A DNA stretch of 43,658 nucleotides from Gemmatimonadota bacterium (GCA_029262115.1 JAJCZZ010000095.1:1-43658); one strand, 5' to 3'; positions 1 through 12,627 are shown, numbered from the stretch's first letter. Numbers and translations are program-made. Notes: generated from the letters alone by a model not told the origin.

Positions 1-609
1 CTGCTCCGGGACGGAGGCCTCGAGCCTGCCGACCGCACGACGTTCGGCGAGTACCTCGCGCTGCTCGAGTTCAAGATCAGCCGCCGCGAGGATCTCGACG
101 GGCAGATCGAGACGCTTGCCCTGAGCCCTCACTACAACTCCGCCATCGAACGACTGTGCTGCTTCCGTGGGATCAGTACGATCGCTGCGATGACGCTCGT
201 CACCGAGATCGGCGACTGGCGTCGCTTCGAACGGCCCGGCCAACTCATGGCCTTCCTGGGTCTCGTGCCCAGCGAGCACTCCTCAGGCGAGCGACACCAC
301 CGCGGCTCGATCACCAAGGCCGGCAACAGTCGATGCCGTCACGTCCTCGTCCAAGCCGCTTGGAGCTACCGATCGCGACCGACCGTGGGCGCGGGGTTGA
401 AGCGAAGACAACAAGGCAAGCCATCCGACGTCATCGCGCACTCCTGGAAGGCCCAGCACCGGCTCCACAAGATCTACCACCGTATCGCGTCCAAGAAGTC
501 GTCGTGCATCGCCGCCGTCGCCGTCGCCCGCGAACTCGCCGGCTTCCTGTGGGCCGTGATGCAGGACCTCGAACACGAACAGGCCCGCGCACTCCGTGAG
601 GCTGCCTAA
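1..609 (+). CDS. IS110-family transposase, 3' part (5' end outside window)
   Basis: The reading frame is open from base 1 and ends at TAA 607-609, giving about 202 residues of the C-terminal part. It matches the Transposase_20 region of IS110 elements: a helix-hairpin segment around 'FRGISTIAAMTLVTEIGDW', then 'GLVPSEHSSGERHHRGSITK' and 'AGNSRCRHVLVQAAW'. The Ser-Ser-Gly stretch is where the family's conserved serine lies. The N-terminal RuvC-like DEDD domain would lie left of the window. IS110 enzymes carry out site-directed recombination without long inverted repeats. The element lies directly downstream of the Druantia-like operon and marks the left edge of the island. Whether it is a complete element cannot be judged. 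Confidence 0.9.
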   Translation: MLRDGGLEPADRTTFGEYLALLEFKISRREDLDGQIETLALSPHYNSAIERLCCFRGISTIAAMTLVTEIGDWRRFERPGQLMAFLGLVPSEHSSGERHHRGSITKAGNSRCRHVLVQAAWSYRSRPTVGAGLKRRQQGKPSDVIAHSWKAQHRLHKIYHRIASKKSSCIAAVAVARELAGFLWAVMQDLEHEQARALREAA

Positions 610-820: not shown

Positions 821-3800
821 TCAAAACGGCCTCCGCAGCACCTCGAAGAGGGACTTAAATCGCACCTGGTTCCCGCCGGCTACTGCCTGTGCATTGGCAG
901 CGGCCAGTTGCGGCCCGAACCGGTTCGGATCAGTGCTCCACAGTGGATGGGTGATGATCTCTACAACATTGCCGCGACTTCCTGCCTGGAGGCCGCCGAT
1001 GGTCGTCTGCCGCCACCCGGGCATGGCTGCGAAATACGGCCGGGCGACTGCCGCGTCGAGACCCTGCCAGTATGAGACCGTGAAGTCGATTGGAGCGGCG
1101 GGATCCAAGGCAAGCCGTGCGACATCCAGGCCCAGGCGCCAATCGAGAATCGGGTGGTAGGGCAAGTTGCTGAAGTCACGAAGGCAATCCGGGCACGAGG
1201 TCCTGCAGGCGTTGCCCCCTGGGCCCGCGTGTTGCTGGCCAACAAGGAACCCGTAGAACGTAGGCGCCTGCGGCGGCTGCCCCAGCACGTACTGCAGGAG
1301 ACGCTCGGCCTCTTGAGGCTGCCCCAGGAGCGATGCGTAACCGGCACCGTTCTCGAGGCTATCCGAGATAAACACCTGCCCGGTAATGTCGCCGCTCGCG
1401 TCACGAAGCACGCGAACGCCTACCTTGATTTCCCGCTCGTGGATATCCAAGTAGTCTGCTGCTGCGCGCCGAAGGAGGAAGCCGAAGGAGAACAGAGCGG
1501 CGCGAACTTCTAGGCCTCTATCTCCAGCAGGCGACGTCTGAAGTCCCACTGGCCAGTTGGCAACGCCCAGCACCATGACGTCAGTTACCTTGACCGATGC
1601 GAGGGCTCTGTCATCGCTCCCGGCAGCCACGTCGATCGGAGGGTTGTTGATTCCGGCTGCGGCGAGAGCATCCTTCGTCGCCCAGGTTTCCCCTTGGACG
1701 AGCTTCTCGAAGGTGAAGAGACGGCCGTCGTTGTCATTGACGACGTAAACCGTCTCCTGCCCGGCCCAGACCTCGAAGTTGGCCCGTTGACTGACAGGGA
1801 GAGACGTAACCCCCATCTTCGGCCGAGATGCGCGTGGCGTCCACTCGAAGGCGCCATCGAAGTCGCGACCGCTCCCGTACCAGGTCCGAAAGCCAGCGGG
1901 CTGGGTAAGCCCGATCACCCGGTACCCGGGATCTTGCGCAGGCGTCGCCCCGCACACAGCGCAGGACGCTGACGGCGGCTGAGATCCGTCTACGGCCTGG
2001 CAGCTTGCACATAAACCAACGGTGATGACAGGTCCAAGGGGGCCAGGATCTTCACTGATGCTGTTGCCCTGAGGCCGGTAGTCGACGACGCCGATGGCCG
2101 TGTGTATGAGCCCATCCTTGACCGTCTCTGCGCCGGGACCGAATTGGCTGATGGCAATGTCCAGCTCTCTGCCGATGACGCCTTCCGGTGGCCACGGGTA
2201 GGCGCGGCGAGGCCGGTCGTGATACAGGAACCTAATCCGGGTGGGGAACCCGAACATCGGCAGCGCTCCAGCATTCGCGAGTCGCTCACTCAAGGCGATC
2301 TGCGTGTAGCGCGGATCGGTCGAGACCGCCGTTACCGCGGGCACCAAGTCATTCATCACATAGTCGATCAACCCTTGCCGCTGTGCCTGAAGCGCGGCAT
2401 CGGCGTAGACCAAGAGAACGTCGCAGACGCGAGCCACTTCTGCGCCATTCTGTTGGATCCATCCGAGAACGAGCTGGGCGGTCGTCGCCGCTGCCGCTGC
2501 TCCGGCCGGGGGCTGGGGAGGAGGCTGGTTCCAATCTGCAGCAGTCCCGAACTCGCCGTGGACGCTATCCCCAGCACCACCGAAGAGACTCAGAGAGGCA
2601 AACGCCTGTCGCAGAATCTCCTTCGCTAGAACTCGCCGGAGGATGATCTCCCGGCGCATGTCAACGTACGGTTGGGGAGGCGGATCTGACGTGATCCGCT
2701 GGGGACGCTGGAAGTAGTAGTCATCGTGGCTCCGCCCTCGACACAGGGTAAGCGCCACAGACACGCCAGAGCCCCGCCTTCCCGCTCGGCCGATCCGCTG
2801 TTGGTAGTTGAAGCGCATGGGCGGCATATTCGCCATCATGACGGCAAGCAGGGACCCAATATCAACGCCGGCTTCCATCGTAGTCGTCACACTCAGCAGG
2901 TCAACCGGATCAGCGAGAGGGTTCTCCCGGGGAGCGGGTAAACAGATGTTCTGAAAAAGGCGCTGCCTCCTTCTCGCGTCGTCCTTGTTCGTCTGACCCG
3001 TGAGTTCCTCGCAGTTCAGCCGGAACACGTCGCCTGCCTGCGTTGCCAGGTAGCCGTAGTAGTCCGCTGACACTTGCGCGCCAGCGGTCGGCTGGGGTGG
3101 GCGAAGAGGAGCCCAGCAGTCGGCGCACACACCGCCGGAGGGGTGAAGGTGGATTCGCCGGCACTGAGTGCATTCGTGGAAGGAGGTCCCCGGCGGTTGG
3201 AGGCAGAGAGAAGTAACTTGGAGATAGTAGTGCGCCGTGTTCAGGCCTCCCGAGGCAGAGAGATAGTTCTTCACGTCGTCGAGGTAGCTGGCTGGTGCGA
3301 GACCATTCTGCTGGGCAACCGCCGTCAAGTATCCGGCCACATAGCCAGGAACAGAGCTCAGCGAGGAAGATGGGTGTGTGGACAGCCGCTTGCGAGATCC
3401 AAGCAGGCGAATGGCCCCGTCCGCACCTTCCTGGATGAGGTTCGAGGCTGCTGGGTTGGTGATCCGATCCGTGGTTGGAAGTGCAAGAAGCAGGGACTCG
3501 ATGCTCCTACGGCCCGAAGCGAACAGGACGTCCATCAACTCCACGACCGAACCGTCTTGAATCCTCCTCAGATGGTCGCGTTGGGGTTGAGACAGTTGGC
3601 CCTGTGGCTTCGCAACTGGTTGTCCCCCCGGCGGCCAGTCATATAGATCGCGCCAGCTGCCATCGCGATTCTGCGAATCGGTCCACAGGGCGTCCTTCCC
3701 GTAGCCAGCTGGGTTCATCCCTTCCGCGAGCAAGCGCGCCGAGGCATCCGCGGCTATCTGCGCTATGCGGAATGGGCCGTTGGCCGCGCGATGGAGGATC

Positions 3801-6385
3801 CGTTGGGCAGCCTGTTGATGTGTCATCGCCAGATTCCCCCCTGACGGCAACCCTGCGGTCAGTGGGTTCGCGGCCATCGCGATGATCATTGCGTCTTGCG
3901 GGTGTTCGGTCTGAAACGTCGCGGCGGCTTCTCGTTGATCTGGCGAGAGTGCCTGTCCCTGACATTGAGCTACGAACGCCTGGGGTCCGCCCGCCTGCTG
4001 CGCGAGTGCGGCCATGAGCGCCTGGCGCAGCGCATCACGATAGTGGGAGAAGCGCATTCCCGCGGAGAGCTTCGCGGCATCCTGGCGGCTGTCGGAGAAG
4101 ACGACCAGCTTGCGTGCCGTTGAGAGCGGAGGTTGGGCGAGGTCGCGCAGCAGTCCATCCGAGAGAACCTGTGCGATTTTCTGGAAACCCGTGCGCTGGG
4201 TTCGGACCGGGGAGCGGACTACCGTTCGCCGGGCCCAATCCGCATCGCACCGAGGACAACGGGCTGGATAGGCTTCGCGGCCAACCCCAGCAGGTGGGGG
4301 ATTCTGCCCGTGAACCGAACGTACGTAGTAGAGATACCCAGCACGCCCACCCTGGGGCGCTCCGCCAAGGCCCACGCGGCCGTCAACAGGATCGAGATAA
4401 GCGGCCCGCCACGCTCGCCCGACACCGTCCTGTGTCCACTGGGGAGACGCTGGCATCAGTGTGTCCGTTGAAGGCCAGAAGACCGCGTAGCGCTCGTAGT
4501 CCCGATCGAAGGAAGCAAGGTCTGGAGCCGCCTCCAAGTTGGGATGGTCTGGGCTCAAGTACCACTCGTTCGGGTTTCCCGCGTCGCGTCGGTACCCGCC
4601 GAAGAGCACCTCACCACACGCCTCGCAGTACAGGAGTTCCAGAATACGAGCACCACACTGGCACGTGAGTGTAGGCACGTAGTGGAGGATGCCTGTGGGA
4701 CAGGGGGCAGATCGCGGCGGCGCCTGCGCGCAGCCAGAATCGGTACAGACCCACAAGCCTTGCAGATTGCGGAGCATCAGATGCACACGCATGGGGATCG
4801 GTGCAAGTCCCGCGTTGTTCCGTGCGTGGGAGAGCGCCGTCAGCAGGCCATCGGTAGCGAGTTCGGCCTGGGGCACACCCGGAAAGAGCGCGGGCGCAAG
4901 CGCGTAATGGGTCTGAGGGACGATCTGCTGCTCCGGTGTGCAGGCGAGGCGCAATGCATCAGGAGCTTGAACGTGTTGAAGGGAGGTGTAAAGCGTCTCC
5001 TCCGCCGACGTCCCGGAAGGCAACGCCGAAGCACCAATTGCTGTATGAAGTGAAGCAGTGGCTTGGGAAAGCGCGGACAACCCGCCCGTCCTGACATCTT
5101 GAGCGAATCGCGCGAACGCCGCGCCGTGAGCTGTGAGCCTGGCCGCTGCGCCGGGACTCGGCGGAACCACATAGTTCGGGCCGCCGATCACTCGGAAGCG
5201 GTTGCGATTCCTGCCGAAGAACTGTTCCAAGTACTGTAGTCCGGTCGTGCCGCTCTCCAGCGACGCGCTGGACGAGATGATGCGAAGCTGATCGGAATCT
5301 GGAACAAGCCCGAGACGATCAAGCAGGGCTCGAAGCAGGTAGGCTACCTCTGTGCCAGGTGTGCCGCGGTAGGTATGCAGCTCATCCACGACGAGATGGA
5401 AGACGTGTTCGGAGGACTGCTCCAACCACTGGCGCGTTTGGTCGAAGATGGGAGTCTCGATAGCTCGCATCAGCATGATGTTGAGCATCGAATAGTTCGT
5501 GATCAGGATGTCCGGTGGCGTATCTTGCATGTCCCAACGAGACCTCATCTCCGCGCCGTCCATGCTCTGGAAGAAGCGTTCTGCTGTGCTGCCTGCGACG
5601 GCCTGCGCGTCCTGGTGGATACTTCTTAGCTCGTCCCGAAGCCGTGCCCTGTTCGACGAGTTGCGGTCCCCCGACACAGGCGTTCTCCCCGTGTATCGGC
5701 CGAAGTACAGGAGGTTCCCGCCGCGATGAGCCTGGAGCCACGCTCGTGCCCCAGCGCTATCCAGCCCCTCGCGCAAGCGCGCCAGCTGATCCTCTACGAG
5801 GGCGTTGAGCGGGTATAGGAGCAGAGCCCGGATCGCCGCCGGCCGAGTTTCATGTGCCCGCTGGCTGACCCGCTCGGCCCAGCGGCGGCGAGTCCCTTGC
5901 ATTGTGAAGTGATTCCACCAGTCCCACTGCGGGGGCGGCTGCCCTGGCGCGCTCCACGCGGCGGACTCCCGCACAATCGACGCGACAACGGGAAGCAAGA
6001 AGCACTCAGTCTTGCCGGAACCCGTCCCAGTGGTGACGACGGCATCCTGTCCGTTGACGACTACCTCTTCGAAGACGTCACGCTGGTGTTGATGAAGCGT
6101 GAGCGTTGAAGGGAAGAGGCCATGATCAACGAACTCGGATGCATCCGCCACCTCTGCGGCCTGCCAGACGTCACCGAGAAGGGCCTGTGCGGCCTGGTTA
6201 AACGACTCTCCGGAGGACCGGTAGGCGGGGACCGGCTCGACCAATGGCAGTCGGTAGATTCGGCCGTCCTGGTCGAGGAGGGTCCGGCGCTCGTCGGTAA
6301 GATCCTCGTACCTGAGGTCAAAGGGGCTGTCGAGGTAACGCAGGTACATGTCACGGAGGTTTTCGAAGAGGCGGATCGGGTTCAT
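821..6385 (-). CDS. druE: Druantia-type large DEAD-like helicase with DUF1998 (DruE-like)
   Basis: This superfamily 2 helicase of about 1854 aa is presumably the motor of a Druantia-type anti-phage system. Seen, counting from the upstream ATG at 6391: Walker A TGTGSGKT at ~121-128; motif Ia 'LLYPLNALVEDQ' ~191; DELH box 336-339; 'SSSASLES' ~373; C577/C579/C589/C592 and C1074/C1077/C1089/C1092 as possible zinc sites; 'TTTMEAGVDIG' ~1169; QRIGRAGRRG 1198-1207. A DUF1998-type C-terminal signature follows, with 'CRTSCPDCLRD' at ~1729 and 'LDWRLGLD' at ~1749. The second ATG (6385) is preferred: it overlaps the upstream gene's TGA as ATGA and has AGGAG 8 nt upstream, whereas for 6391 the AGGAG is only 2 nt away. 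It is the last gene of the operon. DISARM DrmA/B and DpdJ are related, but the fused length and partners fit DruE better. Confidence 0.85.
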   Translation of the reverse strand: MNPIRLFENLRDMYLRYLDSPFDLRYEDLTDERRTLLDQDGRIYRLPLVEPVPAYRSSGESFNQAAQALLGDVWQAAEVADASEFVDHGLFPSTLTLHQHQRDVFEEVVVNGQDAVVTTGTGSGKTECFLLPVVASIVRESAAWSAPGQPPPQWDWWNHFTMQGTRRRWAERVSQRAHETRPAAIRALLLYPLNALVEDQLARLREGLDSAGARAWLQAHRGGNLLYFGRYTGRTPVSGDRNSSNRARLRDELRSIHQDAQAVAGSTAERFFQSMDGAEMRSRWDMQDTPPDILITNYSMLNIMLMRAIETPIFDQTRQWLEQSSEHVFHLVVDELHTYRGTPGTEVAYLLRALLDRLGLVPDSDQLRIISSSASLESGTTGLQYLEQFFGRNRNRFRVIGGPNYVVPPSPGAAARLTAHGAAFARFAQDVRTGGLSALSQATASLHTAIGASALPSGTSAEETLYTSLQHVQAPDALRLACTPEQQIVPQTHYALAPALFPGVPQAELATDGLLTALSHARNNAGLAPIPMRVHLMLRNLQGLWVCTDSGCAQAPPRSAPCPTGILHYVPTLTCQCGARILELLYCEACGEVLFGGYRRDAGNPNEWYLSPDHPNLEAAPDLASFDRDYERYAVFWPSTDTLMPASPQWTQDGVGRAWRAAYLDPVDGRVGLGGAPQGGRAGYLYYVRSVHGQNPPPAGVGREAYPARCPRCDADWARRTVVRSPVRTQRTGFQKIAQVLSDGLLRDLAQPPLSTARKLVVFSDSRQDAAKLSAGMRFSHYRDALRQALMAALAQQAGGPQAFVAQCQGQALSPDQREAAATFQTEHPQDAMIIAMAANPLTAGLPSGGNLAMTHQQAAQRILHRAANGPFRIAQIAADASARLLAEGMNPAGYGKDALWTDSQNRDGSWRDLYDWPPGGQPVAKPQGQLSQPQRDHLRRIQDGSVVELMDVLFASGRRSIESLLLALPTTDRITNPAASNLIQEGADGAIRLLGSRKRLSTHPSSSLSSVPGYVAGYLTAVAQQNGLAPASYLDDVKNYLSASGGLNTAHYYLQVTSLCLQPPGTSFHECTQCRRIHLHPSGGVCADCWAPLRPPQPTAGAQVSADYYGYLATQAGDVFRLNCEELTGQTNKDDARRRQRLFQNICLPAPRENPLADPVDLLSVTTTMEAGVDIGSLLAVMMANMPPMRFNYQQRIGRAGRRGSGVSVALTLCRGRSHDDYYFQRPQRITSDPPPQPYVDMRREIILRRVLAKEILRQAFASLSLFGGAGDSVHGEFGTAADWNQPPPQPPAGAAAAATTAQLVLGWIQQNGAEVARVCDVLLVYADAALQAQRQGLIDYVMNDLVPAVTAVSTDPRYTQIALSERLANAGALPMFGFPTRIRFLYHDRPRRAYPWPPEGVIGRELDIAISQFGPGAETVKDGLIHTAIGVVDYRPQGNSISEDPGPLGPVITVGLCASCQAVDGSQPPSASCAVCGATPAQDPGYRVIGLTQPAGFRTWYGSGRDFDGAFEWTPRASRPKMGVTSLPVSQRANFEVWAGQETVYVVNDNDGRLFTFEKLVQGETWATKDALAAAGINNPPIDVAAGSDDRALASVKVTDVMVLGVANWPVGLQTSPAGDRGLEVRAALFSFGFLLRRAAADYLDIHEREIKVGVRVLRDASGDITGQVFISDSLENGAGYASLLGQPQEAERLLQYVLGQPPQAPTFYGFLVGQQHAGPGGNACRTSCPDCLRDFSNLPYHPILDWRLGLDVARLALDPAAPIDFTVSYWQGLDAAVARPYFAAMPGWRQTTIGGLQAGSRGNVVEIITHPLWSTDPNRFGPQLAAANAQAVAGGNQVRFKSLFEVLRRPF

Positions 6386-7467
6386 GGACATATCTCCTGG
6401 CGCAACAACCCTGCAGCGAGACGCGCCACGCGGCGCGGAACAGCATACTCAAGGCGACCCGTGGTCCTCTCTAGGTTCGGGAGTAGTCCCGTGCAGAGGA
6501 TCAACGCCCTTTCGATGAGAAGCGGCGGCCTGCAACTCACGGGAACCGATAGCAGACACCGGGAGGGGTCGTACTGCAACAGGCCACGCACGCGCCTGTA
6601 CCGGAGAACCGCGTACTTCCCCACTTGGACAGGGACCCTGTACGTCTTCCCCCGCCACCGCAAATAGTGAAGGCGCTGGTACCTCATGCGGAAGCGGAAC
6701 AGCCCTGTCCGAGACCGATGCACATCTCGAGATTCGAGATCTCTTGCGTCCGTCGAGTCTCGTGTAGTCCAGCGCAAGGTGGACGACAAGAATCTCTCAA
6801 TCGTCCACCCCGGCACCGCTGGTGCCTTGTCTGGGACGCGGCTTCGCGGATCATCGACGGGCGGGATTGCTGCCAGCAAGGAGACCGGCGCCATCACCTG
6901 AATGTGTAGGCCTGCTCTCTTGGAGGCTGTCTCGAGTGCCGCGAGCTCGCTAGCCACGAGACGAATACGGTCGGGCATACCAGGCGCCGCTTGAGCCTCC
7001 CATGTGACGGGACCTGGGCCAATCCGGTTGCGCAAGCCAGGTGGGCGCGCGCCACACAGTACTCCTACCCAGTGATCACCTTCCTGGTGAATCGCTAGTG
7101 CCGGGGGTACGACACGCCAGTCAGCCTCCGCAGTCCGGGAGTAGAACTCCACGTGAGCGAGTCGCTGCAGACCAAGGCGCACCGCCTGGTATACGGGAAG
7201 ATCGCCTGCGGTGGCGTCGTCTGCGTTCTCCTCGTCTTCCGCACCGTCGCCCGGCTCGACATGGAGTTCTTCCACCGCCGCGCGGAACTGAGACCAAGAA
7301 CCGCTTCCGCGGGCCGACATCCAGGTGAGCAGATCGTTGAGACTCACCGGCGCGACCTCCAAATGCGTCGTGCCAAGCGCTTGTATGACAGCCATAGCGC
7401 ACGCACCGATTCTGTGTCGGGCTCCGTGGTCATCCCCTTTCGGCTTGCGTCCAAGATCAGCTGACAC
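6382..7467 (-). CDS. druG: Druantia-associated unknown protein (DruG-like by position)
   Basis: This 361-aa protein has no enzyme motif I recognise. Its N-terminal half carries an acidic insert (~residues 72-88) followed by 'AVRLGLQRLAHVEFYS' and 'WRVVPPALAIH', which looks like a winged-helix-type domain. The C-terminal part is rich in Arg, Tyr and Leu. It lies between the membrane-anchored gene and the helicase, the position of druG in type II Druantia; the name rests on gene order, not on recognised homology. The frame opens at a GTG (7467) with no Shine-Dalgarno. An ATG at 7395 (residue 25) is the alternative, overlapping the upstream gene by 52 bp. Its TGA overlaps the helicase ATG, so the two products are probably made together. 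Confidence 0.6.
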   Translation of the reverse strand: MSADLGRKPKGDDHGARHRIGACAMAVIQALGTTHLEVAPVSLNDLLTWMSARGSGSWSQFRAAVEELHVEPGDGAEDEENADDATAGDLPVYQAVRLGLQRLAHVEFYSRTAEADWRVVPPALAIHQEGDHWVGVLCGARPPGLRNRIGPGPVTWEAQAAPGMPDRIRLVASELAALETASKRAGLHIQVMAPVSLLAAIPPVDDPRSRVPDKAPAVPGWTIERFLSSTLRWTTRDSTDARDLESRDVHRSRTGLFRFRMRYQRLHYLRWRGKTYRVPVQVGKYAVLRYRRVRGLLQYDPSRCLLSVPVSCRPPLLIERALILCTGLLPNLERTTGRLEYAVPRRVARLAAGLLRQEICP

Positions 7468-10016
7468 CAGCGGAGCATGTCCGCGTGAGTGCCACTGTTC
7501 GGTCGGCCGCCCTGTCGCTTCTTCGGATCCGGCGCGTCACTCCCGCCGAGACAGAGTATGCGGGTAGTCTTCTTGTCGCAATGAAGCGGGTCTCGCGGCA
7601 GCGCCCAGAGCGGTATAAAGTCGGGAGACGCAATCCGTGGTGCCCCACGCAGTGGAGAAGCCCTTACGGCCATCACGATCTGTCCTGGTTCCGGCCCCAG
7701 CAGGAGAGGGTTCGTTTCCGCCACGGAGAAGGACTCTGAACCCCATGGTTCAGTAGCCGCCGCTCGAACTATGGGCCCGCAGACAGCGAGCCTCAGCGTC
7801 CCATCGAGAGCGACGGGGAAGGCGTACGCGTCCCACAGCTCCCACGACGAATCGAAGGGCACGATCGAGTATGACCTGCTCGATCCAGCACACCAGACGG
7901 AGTGCGATCCGACAGCGTCCCAGCCGGACTTACGATAGGAGCCATCGGCACCACGCTCGGCGACTTCGCCATCGATCCGGACCTCGGAGGCATGTTCAGC
8001 GTCGCCGTACACGCGAATCGACGGGGGATGTCCGTCGAGCCAGTTTATATACCCGAGGCGAATCCCTCGCTCGAGGCTGATCTCGATTCGCGGAAGGGGC
8101 CTGAGCGAGTTGAAGATGTCGGCGCCATCTGTTGGAGAAACCGGTGCGTGTGGAACTACACCTCGAAAGACAAGCCATCCGGGCGGGGCTCCGAAGGACT
8201 CGTCGAGCACGGTCGCCTGCCCCGATCCTGTCTCTCGGATCGCCTCTTCGACGCGATTCCTGAGCGATTCACTACAGAGGACTACGTGGTCGCGCCCGAG
8301 GTCTAGGCAGGGCTGGGATACGTATCCACTGATGTCAGAGCGATCCGCAAGAACGTAGAGTTCGCGCCCACTCAGGGACCATGTACGCCGCCCATTGGCT
8401 CCTTCCTGGGTCCATACTGTGCCGTTACGAAGCACGCTGGAGAAGTCGTCCGGAACGACGTCCTGATACCACTCATCCTGCATCGCCCGCAAGTTCACCT
8501 CGCCTCCACGTGCGACAGCCGTCAGATCTTCCGGCAGGCCGGCGGACCTCTTCGCGATGAGGGATACGTTGCAGAAGCCGCCACGATCGAACCGAAGTCG
8601 GACCTCGATGGGCAAAGAGCGCTCTCGCTGCGCAAGCCCCTCTCCTCCGTGACGTCCCGGTTGCGCTGCCGCATCACGGGGTTCCGGAGCACCGCGAGCA
8701 AGCCCCTTGTACTTGCGGGGCTTCTTCTTCCTGTCCCGCTTTTTTCGCGGGGGCTGAACATGAGCGACAGTTACCGGATCTGTGTCTGGTCCTTCATCGG
8801 CCTCATCTTCGGCCGCTGGCCAAGACGGCTGTTCGTCATCCGGAGTAGATGTCGCCCCTGCAGCCACTACGCCTTCGGCGCCCCTCGCATCGTCTGAACC
8901 CACCGCTTCCGCCGAAGTTTCTTCCTCCGCGGGACGATCTGTTTCCTCTGCGGCAGCGGTAGTCCCAGTCTCAGCCGTTTGCGGAGCGCGATCCGCGGCT
9001 GCTTCACCGGTGGCTTCGGTCTGGTGCGATCCTATCCGCTCTCCCTCGTCCACCAGCGCGTCGAGTCTCTCGACAGCTTCGCCTTCCCCTCCACTGGGTA
9101 CCTCCAAGGCGGGCTCTGGGTCGGAATCCTCTCGATCCTCGGAGGCGGGCGCGTCGTCTTCAACGGGAGCCGCTGAGGGCTGCTCCTCCCGCACAGCTTG
9201 GTCCTGGTCCAGCTCTTCGTCTGCTGCAATGTCGCCAGGTGATACGGGCGCAACATCGCTGGGAGCCGCCTCCTCGCTGTTGGCGGTAGGAGCCGCTTCC
9301 GCGGGCATGTGCGCCTGTTCGTCGCCCTCGCTCCCATGTACATGATCGTCCTCGACCTCGGACTGCCCGGTCGTCCCAGCGGTACGTGGCTCAGCGGTTG
9401 CCACGCCATTGTCTGGGGTCCCGGGAAGAGCATGCATACTGGGTCCTGGAGGAGAGACCTCTGTCTCCACGGCGCTGGAAAGGGCGGGAACGACCTCACC
9501 TTCTGGCGGTCCCTCCTTCGTGGGTTCGGCGATGTCCGAAGTGGAAGTCATTTCGGACTCGGACTCTGGGAGAGCGGAGTCCGGTTCAGGTTCGCCAGGA
9601 GACACTGGCTCCTCGTGACCCGTCACTTCTGGCGCGGCCGTAGGGGAAGGAGTCGCGACGTGCTCCTTATGTGTCGTGACAGCCAACTCTCCCCGCTGAG
9701 TTGCCTCATCTGGTCGAGCGGCAGGCTCCGCTACCGCTGGCGGCCCGCCCGCAGCAGTGTCACTTCGCCGAGCGCTGTCACTTGAGACGAGATTGGTGCC
9801 CGGGGTTCCCTCTCGTGAACCGGATTCGGGCAACGGGGGCTCGGCACGATTGTCGTCCAATACCGTCGCACCGCGGTCCCGGGTGGACTCCGACCCGCCG
9901 GAAGCAGGCTCCGCCTGCGGGGGGCTTCCCCGCGTCCGGAGGTAGTAGAGGAGGGCAGCAGCTCCGACAGCCACAGAGAGGACAACCACGAGCAGAATCT
10001 GCAGTTCGCCGCTCAT
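7344..10016 (-). CDS. druF: Membrane-anchored Druantia-associated protein (DruF-like by position)
   Basis: The product is about 890 aa. Residues ~5-25 form one hydrophobic membrane segment right at the N-terminus ('LQILLVVVLSVAVGAAALLY'). Residues ~30-422 are a long low-complexity region rich in Glu, Ala, Pro, Ser and Thr, strongly acidic and predicted disordered by composition. A basic Lys/Arg patch follows at ~423-440, then a folded-looking domain at ~465-890 with no motif I know. The ATG at 10016 is chosen because it overlaps the glycosylase TGA as ATGA and puts the hydrophobic segment at the N-terminus; the open frame continues upstream to 10379 only as a shadow of the glycosylase. In type II Druantia the gene after the methylase is druF. 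The anchor suggests that part of the system works at the inner membrane. Confidence 0.6.
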   Translation of the reverse strand: MSGELQILLVVVLSVAVGAAALLYYLRTRGSPPQAEPASGGSESTRDRGATVLDDNRAEPPLPESGSREGTPGTNLVSSDSARRSDTAAGGPPAVAEPAARPDEATQRGELAVTTHKEHVATPSPTAAPEVTGHEEPVSPGEPEPDSALPESESEMTSTSDIAEPTKEGPPEGEVVPALSSAVETEVSPPGPSMHALPGTPDNGVATAEPRTAGTTGQSEVEDDHVHGSEGDEQAHMPAEAAPTANSEEAAPSDVAPVSPGDIAADEELDQDQAVREEQPSAAPVEDDAPASEDREDSDPEPALEVPSGGEGEAVERLDALVDEGERIGSHQTEATGEAAADRAPQTAETGTTAAAEETDRPAEEETSAEAVGSDDARGAEGVVAAGATSTPDDEQPSWPAAEDEADEGPDTDPVTVAHVQPPRKKRDRKKKPRKYKGLARGAPEPRDAAAQPGRHGGEGLAQRERSLPIEVRLRFDRGGFCNVSLIAKRSAGLPEDLTAVARGGEVNLRAMQDEWYQDVVPDDFSSVLRNGTVWTQEGANGRRTWSLSGRELYVLADRSDISGYVSQPCLDLGRDHVVLCSESLRNRVEEAIRETGSGQATVLDESFGAPPGWLVFRGVVPHAPVSPTDGADIFNSLRPLPRIEISLERGIRLGYINWLDGHPPSIRVYGDAEHASEVRIDGEVAERGADGSYRKSGWDAVGSHSVWCAGSSRSYSIVPFDSSWELWDAYAFPVALDGTLRLAVCGPIVRAAATEPWGSESFSVAETNPLLLGPEPGQIVMAVRASPLRGAPRIASPDFIPLWALPRDPLHCDKKTTRILCLGGSDAPDPKKRQGGRPNSGTHADMLRWCQLILDASRKGMTTEPDTESVRALWLSYKRLARRIWRSRR

Positions 10017-10795
10017 GCACGGACGCTCTTCCGTGAGACCGTGACGGCACACGAGTCGATGCTGCGATCTCCCCGCGCGCTTGATGTGATGTCTGCGGGC
10101 ACACCACACATCGGGCAGATGCTGCGCGCTGGGCAGCTTGAGCACAGGGGTCGCCGGGGCAAACACGTTCCCTGGCCATCCACCACGAGATTGATGTGGA
10201 ACGGCTTCCTCCGCGAAGCTTCGACGGCATCCTGCAGGCCATCGTGAAGACCTCGCCGCCGGTACACGGAGCCGCGTCCAAGCACTCCTGCGCGCTTGAA
10301 GATCCGAAACGTGTTGCCGTCGACCGGGAACGCGTCCCTGCCAAGGCTGTACAGTAGGACGCACCGCGCGGCCTTCCACGACAGTCCGGGAAGACGAGTC
10401 AGGAACCGCTCCGCTTCGTCATCCTCCATGTCCCGCAGAACATCGAGCGAGTAGCTTCCGGTCTCTTGCTTCGTCGCCTTCAACAGCTTCTTGATCGTCC
10501 TGGCCTTCTGCTCCTGCAGGCCCCCAACACGAAGTGTCTTGACGACCCGGCCCAGCGGCGCTTGAGCCAACGAGTCCCAGGCTGGGAAAGCCGCGCGAAG
10601 TTCGTCCCACACCGATCTGAAGCGATCGAGATCGGTCTGGAAGCTGAGAACCATGTAGACGGCCTCGTCGAGCGGATCGGCCTTGTTGTCGAGGTCCGCC
10701 TCCGGGGCACCGTAGGCATCATCGAGAAGACGGTCGAGCTCCTGGAGAGTACGTTTCGCGCTAGCGCGAAGTCGGAAGCGGATCGCACGCCCCAT
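10013..10795 (-). CDS. Endonuclease III-like HhH-GPD DNA glycosylase with [4Fe-4S] cluster
   Basis: This 260-aa protein has the endonuclease III fold signatures: 'LSFQTD' ~50-55, the helix-hairpin-helix 'LPGLSWKAA' with Lys at 141 (Lys120 position of E. coli Nth), and 'FPVDGNTFRIFKR' with Asp159 (Asp138 position). The iron-sulphur loop is complete: C211-x6-C218-x2-C221-x5-C227. Keeping the Lys predicts a bifunctional glycosylase/AP-lyase, unlike MutY or the MIG mismatch enzymes. It lies 10 bp after the cytosine methyltransferase and overlaps the next gene by 4 bp (ATGA), so it is a true operon member. Mismatch glycosylases beside C5-methyltransferases are known to repair T:G arising from 5-methylcytosine deamination; that role, or an attack on modified phage DNA, is an inference. 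A further ~30 residues follow the cluster, including C230. Confidence 0.9.
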   Translation of the reverse strand: MGRAIRFRLRASAKRTLQELDRLLDDAYGAPEADLDNKADPLDEAVYMVLSFQTDLDRFRSVWDELRAAFPAWDSLAQAPLGRVVKTLRVGGLQEQKARTIKKLLKATKQETGSYSLDVLRDMEDDEAERFLTRLPGLSWKAARCVLLYSLGRDAFPVDGNTFRIFKRAGVLGRGSVYRRRGLHDGLQDAVEASRRKPFHINLVVDGQGTCLPRRPLCSSCPARSICPMCGVPADITSSARGDRSIDSCAVTVSRKSVRA

Positions 10796-10805
10796 GGCCA
10801 GCTCC

Positions 10806-12164
10806 TCAGCGCTTGGGGATCCGCAAGGCCTCTCCCAGGATTGCGCTCACGAGAAGCGGAGGCACAGAGTTACCAATCATCTCGTAGGCGCTGCGGCGGC
10901 ACGCGAGTGCCTGAGGGAAGGTCACGAAGTCAGGAAGTCCTTGAATGCGGGCATACTCGCGGACGGACAGGGATCTTTCGCCGGCAAAGTGGTAGACGCA
11001 GTCGTACCTGGTGGACAGAGCGGTTGAGGGGGCGCTGGGATGCAGGCGCCTGTACGCTGAGTCAAAGCGGCGCGACAGTCCATTGAGTAGGTGCGCGGGG
11101 ATGTCCCGAGCGCATCCGCCCGGGGGGATCTGCTGCAGGCGTAGGACGGTCTCGCGACGAACGGCTGGGGTTTGAGTGTTCGAGAGGCGGTTGGGTGCGC
11201 CCTCTCGCATGAGACGCTGGTAGGCAGTCTTGGCCGGGGTCGCATAGGATCGCGGTTCTTCCGGTGCCCCTGGACCCAGCACGGGGATGTCCGAGAGAGC
11301 ATGTTGAGCCTGAGTCATGGTCAGATCCTGCGGGTCGGCCAAGATGGAGTGGTAGCTATCCATCTCCCGGGGAATCTCGCCTCCGTGGCGAATGGCCGCG
11401 TACAGCGGGGCGAGGTCCGGGCCTGGCTTCGGTAGCGCTTCTTCCCCCGAGCCCGACCGAACGCAGAGAATGAGAAGCCGCCTGCGAGCTTGTGGCGTTC
11501 CGTAGAGCGCGGCATCGAAGACATCGTGCTTGACCCGATAGCGAAGACCCCGTGGCCCGGGCGCCTCGAGACGAGCAAGTAGGTCCTTCAGAGTCCTTCC
11601 GCCACGATGACGGATGAGATCGGGTACGTTCTCGATGAGAACAAGGCGCGGCCGAAGCGCTGCCACGTAGTCCGGCATGATCTCGAGCAGGCGATTGTGT
11701 TGATTCGCCTTGGCCTTGTGATGGTGGCCGTTCCGGATCTGGCTGAAGCCCTTGCATGGGGGACCGGCCGCTAGGAGATCCACGCCGTCGAGCTTGCGGC
11801 AGTCCTTCTTCACCCTGCGCAGCCCTTTGTCAGTCAGCAGGTCGCACTCTACGGCCACAGGTTCCGAAGCGTTGTGGTTGTGATTGTAGATGGCGACCGC
11901 CTCGTCCCACGAGTCGTAGGCGTGAACTACGCGAAAGCCCAGTGCTCGGATTCCTAGGCCAATCCCTCCCATGCCACAGCAAAGCTCAACGGCGACACCA
12001 GGCGAGGGAGAATGAGCGCTCCACCGAAGTCGGAGTTCCATCTGTGATTTGTTGACTGGCACCATCCATTCCGTTTGCGGTGACTTGATCTCCACCGAAT
12101 ACGCCGCATGAAACGATATCAGCAACCCCGTGATACCTGACAGCTCTCCGAGAGTTGCCACCAC
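10806..12164 (-). CDS. druM: DNA (cytosine-5-)-methyltransferase of Druantia-like system (DruM-like)
   Basis: The 452-aa product carries the ordered C5-methyltransferase motifs: I 'VELCCGMGGIGLG' ~59-71 (SAM binding), IV 'AAGPPCKGFSQ' ~132-142 with nucleophile Cys137, VI 'ENVPD' ~178-182, VIII 'QARRRLLI', and X 'GNSVPP' ~431-436. Between VIII and X lies a target-recognition region of about 160 residues. It is the first gene of the five-gene defence operon. A methylase in first position with a DUF1998 helicase last is the hallmark of type II Druantia, where it is thought to mark self DNA. The frame opens at GTG 12164, but conserved sequence starts only near residue 55, so ATG 12065 or 12041 may be the real start; none has a strong ribosome site. 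Target sequence cannot be deduced. Confidence 0.9.
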   Translation of the reverse strand: MVATLGELSGITGLLISFHAAYSVEIKSPQTEWMVPVNKSQMELRLRWSAHSPSPGVAVELCCGMGGIGLGIRALGFRVVHAYDSWDEAVAIYNHNHNASEPVAVECDLLTDKGLRRVKKDCRKLDGVDLLAAGPPCKGFSQIRNGHHHKAKANQHNRLLEIMPDYVAALRPRLVLIENVPDLIRHRGGRTLKDLLARLEAPGPRGLRYRVKHDVFDAALYGTPQARRRLLILCVRSGSGEEALPKPGPDLAPLYAAIRHGGEIPREMDSYHSILADPQDLTMTQAQHALSDIPVLGPGAPEEPRSYATPAKTAYQRLMREGAPNRLSNTQTPAVRRETVLRLQQIPPGGCARDIPAHLLNGLSRRFDSAYRRLHPSAPSTALSTRYDCVYHFAGERSLSVREYARIQGLPDFVTFPQALACRRSAYEMIGNSVPPLLVSAILGEALRIPKR

Positions 12165-12220
12165 GCTGGTTCAGGCCCTCAAAACTGCGCTCACATGGCG
12201 AGCCCAATGGCAGATACCCA

Positions 12221-12588
12221 CTACTTCCTCCCCTTCTTCGTCGCTTTCGGCTTCAGCGAAGACACATACTCGAAGCTCGCCGCCAGATAGGGCGCGAGGG
12301 CGTCAGTCTGCTCCAAGAGGGCATCAGGGACCGCCACGTACTCCTTCATCACGGTACCGTGGGACTCCAGCAGACCCGCTCCGTACTCGGCCATGAACGC
12401 GCTTCGCATCTCAGCGGGAATGCGGGAATACGGATGCCCAGGGTCGCGTCGGAGGAGAACACCGTGAACATGTGCCCGTTGATGGAGGTGTAGAGCATAT
12501 TCTTTCCCTTCAGGGAGACCTCAGGATGGGTCGATAGCAGTCGCTCGTACGCTTCCCGCTTCGCCTCGCTGACCGCGGTCTTTCCCAT
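12221..12588 (-). pseudogene. TfoX-like small protein, frameshifted by an 8-bp tandem duplication
   Basis: The N-terminal part (from ATG 12588: 'MGKTAVSEAKREAYERLL', then 'LYTSINGHMFTVFSS', 'LGIRIPA') and the C-terminal part ('MRSAFMAEYGAGLLES', 'HGTVMKEYVAVPDALL', 'FEYVSSLKPKATKK') join into one TfoX/YjbR-like protein of about 120 aa. They lie in different frames. The break coincides with a direct tandem copy of gcgggaat at 12414-12421 and 12422-12429; removing one copy restores one frame. Such proteins are small, mostly uncharacterised single-domain proteins. The gene lies 57 bp upstream of the methyltransferase on the same strand, so it may share or precede its transcript. A sequencing error is unlikely to create an exact 8-bp duplication, though an assembly slip is possible. 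Confidence 0.8.
12414..12429. repeat. 8-bp tandem duplication disrupting the TfoX-like gene
   Basis: Two adjacent exact copies of gcgggaat. The eight extra bases shift the frame between 'LGIRIPA' and 'EMRSAF' of the minus-strand gene, which explains its split. Confidence 0.85.
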
Positions 12589-12627
12589 CACGACCTCCGA
12601 TAAAAGCACCCAGCCTGGAGAACCCAA

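What the first reader, a model, noticed from the sequence alone, without database searches (positions are those of the whole stretch)
821..12164. Five-gene Druantia type II-like operon with an extra DNA glycosylase
Seen: a C5-methyltransferase, a HhH-GPD glycosylase, a membrane-anchored unknown, a second unknown and a 1854-aa DUF1998 helicase, all on one strand with 4-10-bp junctions and a longer overlap between the two unknowns. Known: type II Druantia is DruM-DruF-DruG-DruE. Inference: this is a Druantia variant in which a base-excision enzyme is a fixed component, adding a possible nuclease activity to a system with no recognised nuclease.
Basis: partly seen in the sequence, partly recalled or inferred. 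Interest (0 to 1): 0.88.

Follow-up and report, generated by a model that had tools for sequence, protein, structure and literature searches.

The report
Druantia operon with methylase-linked repair glycosylase
This is a five-gene phage-defence operon of the Druantia type IV kind that also makes a DNA-methylating enzyme and a DNA glycosylase; in relatives the glycosylase goes with the methylase and takes the place of the mismatch-repair enzyme Vsr, so it most likely repairs the mutations that methylation causes and is probably not a weapon against phage DNA.

Summary
The five genes are real and at the stated place: C5-MTase, HhH-GPD glycosylase, DruF-like, DruL-like and DruE on the minus strand, tightly spaced. 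PADLOC profiles make it Druantia type IV-like (DruE4 1741 bits, DruL4 1.7e-18, weak DruF, no DruG), not type II. The glycosylase recurs: the same five genes in the same order occur in five other loci from at least four phylum-level groups.

Its partner is the methylase, not the helicase. Among 31 loci with a C5-MTase, 10 carry HhH-GPD, 17 carry Vsr, none carries both. The 9 loci without an intact MTase have neither; two hold decayed glycosylase remnants. Two operons 92% identical over the 8-kb core carry unrelated MTase+glycosylase cassettes; one is a single-ORF fusion to a glycosylase whose best PDB match is the T:G-mismatch enzyme MIG. MIG-like genes also sit beside C5-MTases on plasmids without Druantia.

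Best explanation: a genome-protecting companion that removes T arising from 5mC deamination (about 0.75). The 'added nuclease' reading is weak: relatives already encode a PD-(D/E)XK nuclease (DruK), and one relative lacks the lyase lysine. Phylogenetic correction leaves few independent contrasts, and no substrate was tested.

The parts
10806..12164 (-). C5-cytosine DNA methyltransferase (DruM-like / type II MTase)
   Evidence: PF00145 1e-45; PADLOC MTase_II 4e-61, DruM2 4e-52; motifs GPPCKGFSQ, ENV, TPQARRR, GNSVPP intact in the sequence
10013..10795 (-). HhH-GPD DNA glycosylase, K141 + D159 + 4Fe-4S cysteines C211/C218/C221/C227
   Evidence: PF00730; NCBIfam DR2438-type 1.3e-31 below its cutoff; PDB best hits D. 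radiodurans EndoIII-1 3.9e-26, then ROS1 1e-11, MIG 2e-9; family alignment A1; dN/dS 0.17-0.19
7344..10016 (-). DruF-like protein, 890 aa: N-terminal hydrophobic segment (likely membrane anchor), about 400-aa Pro/Ala/Glu-rich linker, conserved beta-rich C-terminal half
   Evidence: PADLOC DruF2 3e-7 and DruF4 1e-4 over residues about 500-690; homologs in 37 other loci; hydrophobicity; AlphaFold of C-terminal half pLDDT 85, no PDB match
6382..7467 (-). DruL-like protein (start uncertain, GTG 7467 or internal ATG near 7392)
   Evidence: PADLOC DruL4 1.7e-18 over positions 5-305/309; 38-sequence alignment A2; AlphaFold pLDDT 86
821..6391 (-). DruE, YprA-family SF2 helicase, Walker A and DEAH-type motifs intact
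   Evidence: PADLOC DruE4 1740 bits over nearly full length, DruE2 1590; PF00270 6e-15, PF00271 6e-6
190..609 (+). Fragment of an IS110/IS116-family transposase at the downstream edge of the operon (boundary, not part of the system; the contig starts at base 1)
   Evidence: PF02371 3.2e-18; window = G000:C95:1-43658

Best explanation
A Druantia type IV-like defence operon (DruF-DruL-DruE core) joined to a self-modification cassette of two genes. The C5-MTase methylates a sequence motif in the host genome (shown: intact MTase; inferred: it marks self). 5-methylcytosine deaminates to thymine, giving T:G mismatches at those sites. The HhH-GPD glycosylase removes the mismatched T, with or without nicking at the abasic site, so that base-excision repair restores C (inferred). 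It does for this methylase what Vsr does for Dcm, and what MIG is thought to do for the MTase on plasmid pFV1. Attack on incoming DNA is left to the helicase core DruE with DruF and DruL, and in many relatives to the PD-(D/E)XK nuclease DruK; the glycosylase is not needed for attack (inferred).
For: (1) Complementary distribution: of 31 loci with an intact C5-MTase, 10 have HhH-GPD, 17 have Vsr, none both; 0 of 9 loci without an intact MTase have either. (2) The repair enzyme follows the MTase, not DruE: MTase and Vsr lie side by side on the opposite strand in L027 (and beside a disrupted vsr in L019), beside the MTase in L007, L008 and L026, divergent in L042/L043; MTase and HhH-GPD are a convergent pair behind the operon in L029. 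(3) Cassette swap: L018 and L039 are 92% identical over 8.1 kb of the core, with no nucleotide similarity upstream, where L018 has separate MTase + window-type glycosylase and L039 an MTase-HhH-GPD single-ORF fusion. (4) The L039 glycosylase's best PDB match is MIG, the G-T mismatch enzyme (4.8e-37), with MIG's Tyr at the lysine position. (5) Decay with MTase loss: L004 has no MTase and a truncated glycosylase without the catalytic Asp; L005 has no MTase and a short remnant. (6) Outside Druantia, a C5-MTase lies close to a MIG-like gene on 6 of 7 plasmids inspected, including pFV1 mig beside a cytosine MTase and NgoPII-type REase, and on a Roseobacter-group plasmid with an MvaI/BcnI-type RM system. 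(7) Vsr's role in repairing deaminated 5mC is established (reviewed in PMC12907096).
Against: The window enzyme has EndoIII-type K141/D159, not MIG's Tyr, and its closest solved relative is EndoIII-1, so T:G specificity cannot be read from the sequence. Related loci are not independent: after phylogenetic pairing only 3 contrasts remain for MTase/repair enzyme, all in the same direction (p 0.25), and at least 3 switches between glycosylase and Vsr. Four MTase loci (L019, L030, L046, L051) have no intact partner. In L003 the glycosylase is intact but the only MTase is a different one behind druE. Vsr-type domains also serve as effector nucleases in ARMADA helicases (PMC12458937), so replacement by Vsr does not by itself exclude an effector role.
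Confidence: 0.75

Rival explanations
1. The glycosylase is a defence effector: it excises a base (unmethylated motif base, or a phage-modified base) from incoming DNA and its AP-lyase lysine nicks the strand, as restriction glycosylases (PabI) or Brig-type glycosylases do; the C5-MTase protects self.
For: K141/D159 as in bifunctional HhH-GPD enzymes; tight co-transcription with a 4-bp overlap into druF; glycosylases do act in phage defence (Brig1 PMC11078745, Brig3 PMC13160076, PabI family PMC10273834). The window branch (window, L011, L016) shows no DruK gene.
Against: Replaced by Vsr or by MIG-type glycosylases whose known job is repair; decays when the MTase is lost although the helicase core stays; K141 is Asn in L006 although the operon is otherwise intact; Brig and PabI enzymes belong to other folds; DruK coexists with the glycosylase in L006, L024, L029, L032 and L039.
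Confidence: 0.13
2. The glycosylase is a bacterial 5-methylcytosine (or oxidised 5mC) glycosylase, like plant ROS1/DEMETER, that removes marks made by the neighbouring MTase and so resets methylation.
For: ROS1 is the next best PDB sequence match after the D. radiodurans EndoIII enzymes (1.3e-11, residues 72-171); shared FPVD-type motif and 4Fe-4S cluster.
Against: ROS1 and EndoIII share the wider family, and the D. radiodurans EndoIII hits are far stronger (3.9e-26); excising 5mC at many methylated sites would be toxic and would undo self-marking; Vsr cannot replace such a function.
Confidence: 0.05
3. The glycosylase is a general EndoIII-like repair gene that happens to ride on the element.
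For: Chromosomal EndoIII-like relatives without an adjacent MTase exist in other families of the same phylum.
Against: Conserved position between MTase and druF in loci from several phyla, purifying selection, and dependence on the MTase; close homologs in only 1 of 395 genomes of the phylum at E<=1e-40.
Confidence: 0.05

Closest known systems
Druantia type IV (PADLOC; Payne et al. 2021, PMC8565338)
   Same: DruE4-type helicase as best model, DruL4 full-length match, DruF-family protein, gene order F-L-E; no DruG
   Different: Adds a DruM-like C5-MTase and an HhH-GPD gene; DruF has lost the canonical N-terminal part and carries a hydrophobic segment plus long low-complexity linker instead
Druantia type II (DruM-DruF-DruG-DruE; Doron et al. 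2018)
   Same: C5-MTase first, DruF-family protein, DruE last
   Different: No DruG; DruL in that place; DruE scores higher with type IV (1740 against 1590 bits)
Dcm-Vsr and C5-MTase RM systems with Vsr
   Same: C5-MTase paired with an enzyme that starts repair of deaminated 5mC; Vsr takes the glycosylase's role in 17 related Druantia loci
   Different: Here the repair enzyme is an HhH-GPD glycosylase, not a PD-(D/E)XK nicking enzyme
MIG (mig of plasmid pFV1, Methanothermobacter), T:G/U:G mismatch glycosylase beside an NgoPII-type RM system
   Same: HhH-GPD 4Fe-4S glycosylase near a C5-MTase; direct homolog fused to the MTase in L039
   Different: Window enzyme has Lys where MIG has Tyr and is closer to D. 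radiodurans EndoIII-1
Brig1/Brig3 and PabI-type defence glycosylases
   Same: Glycosylase near defence genes
   Different: Other folds and not tied to a C5-MTase (PabI aside); no defence role shown here

Membership tests
Druantia type IV | DruE helicase | tested here: met
   PDLC00051 DruE4 1740 bits, 2-1855 of 1856
Druantia type IV | DruL | tested here: met
   PDLC00057 1.7e-18 over positions 5-305 of 309
Druantia type IV | DruF | tested here: inconclusive
   DruF2 3.3e-7 / DruF4 9.8e-5 over about 160 residues only; N-terminal 300 profile positions unmatched; joined to canonical DruF only through intermediates
Druantia type IV | No DruM and no DruG (published definition) | tested here: not met
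   No DruG hit, but a C5-MTase with DruM2 4e-52 is present; hence 'type IV-like variant', not plain type IV
Druantia type II | DruG present | tested here: not met
   No DruG model among hits up to E=1 for any of the five proteins
Druantia type II | DruM C5-MTase present | tested here: met
   DruM2 4e-52, though generic type II MTase models score higher
MIG-type T:G mismatch glycosylase | HhH-GPD fold with 4Fe-4S cluster | tested here: met
   PF00730; C-x6-C-x2-C-x5-C invariant
MIG-type T:G mismatch glycosylase | Tyr at the EndoIII Lys120 position | tested here: not met
   K141 in the window; Tyr in the L039 fusion and in the RM-linked L052 enzyme
MIG-type T:G mismatch glycosylase | Excises T from T:G | not testable with these tools
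   needs an enzyme assay
Restriction / defence glycosylase | Base excision from phage or unmodified DNA causes protection | not testable with these tools
   needs phage and enzyme assays; PabI and Brig enzymes are of other folds

The most novel reading that the evidence does not exclude
The HhH-GPD protein is a true effector of a methylase-bearing Druantia: a sequence- or modification-specific glycosylase/lyase of the EndoIII family that attacks phage DNA opened by DruE, with the C5-MTase as its antidote. To my knowledge that would be the first EndoIII-family restriction glycosylase.
Probability: 0.12. Interest if true: 0.8.

Novelty: new variant of a known kind. Interest (0 to 1): 0.47.

Why it matters
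Defence systems that methylate host DNA with a C5-MTase pay for it in C-to-T mutations. This branch of Druantia appears to carry its own insurance, and different lineages hold different forms of it: an EndoIII-like glycosylase, a MIG-like glycosylase fused to the methylase, or Vsr. If right, glycosylases and Vsr proteins found in defence islands should not be counted as effectors without a test, and the methylase of these Druantia operons must be active enough in the cell for mutation to matter. It also shows that the modification cassette is exchanged as a unit while the DruF-DruL-DruE core stays the same.

Tried and rejected
Type II assignment: rejected, no DruG and a better type IV DruE score. 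Fold of DruL and of the DruF C-terminal half: good AlphaFold models (pLDDT 86 and 85) but no confident PDB match; DruL gives only middling similarities (an ROK/MecR2-like wHTH at residues about 40-121, Z 4-5; an alpha/beta region 120-192, Z up to 6), so no mechanism was drawn from them. DruE and glycosylase homologs in viral contigs: none. Window-type glycosylase on plasmids: only distant, EndoIII-like hits; phages: three unannotated records at 24-28% identity. The simple statistics (Fisher 2.6e-6 for MTase against repair enzyme; 2e-5 for no overlap) are not taken at face value because the loci are related; the tree-aware test has too few independent pairs. Two further loci from the window's own phylum (L058, L060) again showed MTase with Vsr and no glycosylase.

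Full report
OBSERVATION. The five ORFs exist as described, on the minus strand between 821 and 12164. Order in transcription: C5-MTase (12164-10806), HhH-GPD (10795-10013), DruF-like (10016-7344), DruL-like (7467-6382), DruE (6391-821). The DruF/DruL overlap is 124 bp if the GTG at 7467 is used and about 50 bp if an internal ATG is used. dN/dS between the window and the closest five-gene locus, L016, is 0.12-0.13 for the MTase, 0.17-0.19 for the glycosylase, 0.27-0.32 for DruF, 0.16-0.20 for DruL and 0.11-0.13 for DruE, so all five are under selection as proteins. The operon ends next to an IS110-family transposase fragment and the start of the contig.

IDENTITY OF THE CORE. PADLOC models: DruE4 1740 bits over the whole protein (DruE2 1590), DruL4 1.7e-18 full length, DruF2/DruF4 weak (3e-7 / 1e-4) over about 160 residues, no DruG. 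Payne et al. define type IV as DruE + DruF + DruL without DruM and DruG (PMC8565338). The window is therefore type IV-like with an added DruM-like MTase. Its DruF is divergent: in this branch most DruF proteins start with a hydrophobic segment and a long Pro/Ala/Glu-rich stretch, and the N-terminal 300 positions of the canonical profile are unmatched, whereas DruF of L041 and L043 matches canonical DruF well.

RELATED LOCI. A genome scan with DruE gave 42 loci; two further loci came from the window's own phylum and seven, more distant, from plasmids. The five genes in the same order are found in L006 (Planctomycetia), L016 (Rhodothermales), L018 (Steroidobacteraceae), L024 (Deltaproteobacteria) and L032 (Betaproteobacteria); L003 and L011 have the glycosylase next to DruF, L011 cut at the contig end.

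THE GLYCOSYLASE GOES WITH THE METHYLASE. Profiles built from the loci were run over all frames and tabulated by hand. Of 31 loci with an intact C5-MTase and readable flanks, 10 carry HhH-GPD, 17 carry Vsr (PF03852), none both, four neither (in one of these, L019, a vsr gene is present but split between frames). Of 9 loci without an intact MTase, none has an intact partner; L004 has a truncated glycosylase without the catalytic Asp, L005 a short remnant. Where the MTase sits away from the operon the repair gene sits with it: L007, L008, L026 (behind druE), L019/L027 (opposite strand), L042/L043 (separate, divergent), L029 (MTase + HhH-GPD convergent behind the operon). The pattern is not universal: in most alphaproteobacterial loci the MTase is first and vsr last in the operon, and in L021 vsr lies 1-2 kb behind it.

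CASSETTE SWAP. L018 and L039 share 92% nucleotide identity from the middle of druF to past druE (8.1 kb) and none upstream. L018 has separate MTase and window-type glycosylase genes. L039 has one 552-aa ORF, C5-MTase (PF00145) fused to HhH-GPD (PF00730). The fused glycosylase is closest in the PDB to MIG, 'possible G-T mismatches repair enzyme' (1kea, 4.8e-37), and has Tyr at the position where EndoIII has its lysine. The L029 glycosylase is closest to D. radiodurans EndoIII-1. So at least three HhH-GPD sequence types and Vsr fill the same role beside the MTase.

OUTSIDE DRUANTIA. MIG-like genes found on plasmids with the L039 domain were inspected at seven places, chosen mostly because they were not annotated as mutY; six lie next to or within a few genes of a DNA cytosine MTase, including pFV1 of Methanothermobacter (mig, NgoPII-type REase, C5-MTase), a Caldicellulosiruptor plasmid and a Thermus plasmid with overlapping MTase and glycosylase genes. 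On a Roseobacter-group plasmid (L052) a C5-MTase, an MvaI/BcnI-type REase and a MIG-like 'hypothetical protein' form a standard RM system. Conversely, EndoIII-like chromosomal relatives in the window's phylum have no MTase beside them within the 1.5 kb or less of flank held.

ACTIVE SITE. The window glycosylase has K141 and D159 at the EndoIII catalytic positions and the four cluster cysteines. K141 would permit AP-lyase action, but it is Asn in L006, a metagenome assembly, so strand nicking is perhaps not required. The residues do not tell the substrate.

NUCLEASE. Twenty related loci have an intact PD-(D/E)XK gene directly behind druE (PF12705; PADLOC DruK 8.9e-26), five of them together with a glycosylase. 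Published work also assigns nuclease or inactivated nuclease domains to DruE homologs (PMC12458937). The system is thus not without a recognised nuclease. DruK is not seen in the window, L011, L016 or L010; in the window the contig ends soon after druE, so absence is not proven.

MECHANISM. Shown: gene content, conservation, complementary distribution, cassette swap, fusion with a MIG-like domain. Established elsewhere: Vsr and MIG start repair of T:G. Inferred: the MTase marks self; the window glycosylase removes deaminated 5mC; DruF-DruL-DruE acts against foreign DNA. The main gap is the lack of an enzyme assay, and the relatedness of the loci limits the statistics: three independent contrasts, all in the predicted direction, p 0.25.

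NOVELTY. No paper found in the searched library links an HhH-GPD gene to Druantia, but MTase-plus-T:G-glycosylase is a known kind of pair and Druantia IV a known kind of system.

Noticed in passing
L039:5167-6822: Single-ORF fusion of a C5-MTase and a MIG-like HhH-GPD glycosylase (552 aa) in front of a Druantia core, in a Nitrospira MAG.
   Followed up: yes
window 7344-10016 and DruF of most related loci: DruF of this branch starts with a hydrophobic segment and a long Pro/Ala/Glu-rich linker, unlike canonical DruF (L041-L043); this suggests a membrane-tethered Druantia variant.
   Followed up: partly
L007:13155-15828; L008:9328-11607: C5-MTase, a third gene and Vsr directly behind druE; in L007 the third gene is a NotI-type REase (PF12183), so a complete RM system is docked to Druantia.
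   Followed up: partly
L015:2533-11142: A DruE locus with no DruF or DruL detected; a large protein with a weak McrBC-component match (PF10117, below cutoff) and a GTPase-like motif lies in their place; the MTase is C-terminally truncated.
   Followed up: partly
L010 / L059 (same contig of a Gemmatimonadota MAG): DruE and a partial DruL but no DruF, MTase or glycosylase detected; perhaps a decaying operon.
   Followed up: no
window 190-609: IS110/IS116-family transposase fragment between druE and the contig start; it may have displaced a downstream druK gene.
   Followed up: partly
window 12217-12590, minus strand: Between the MTase and the next upstream gene lies a short reading frame that seems to be broken by a frameshift (stops in the tested frame); not identified.
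   Followed up: no
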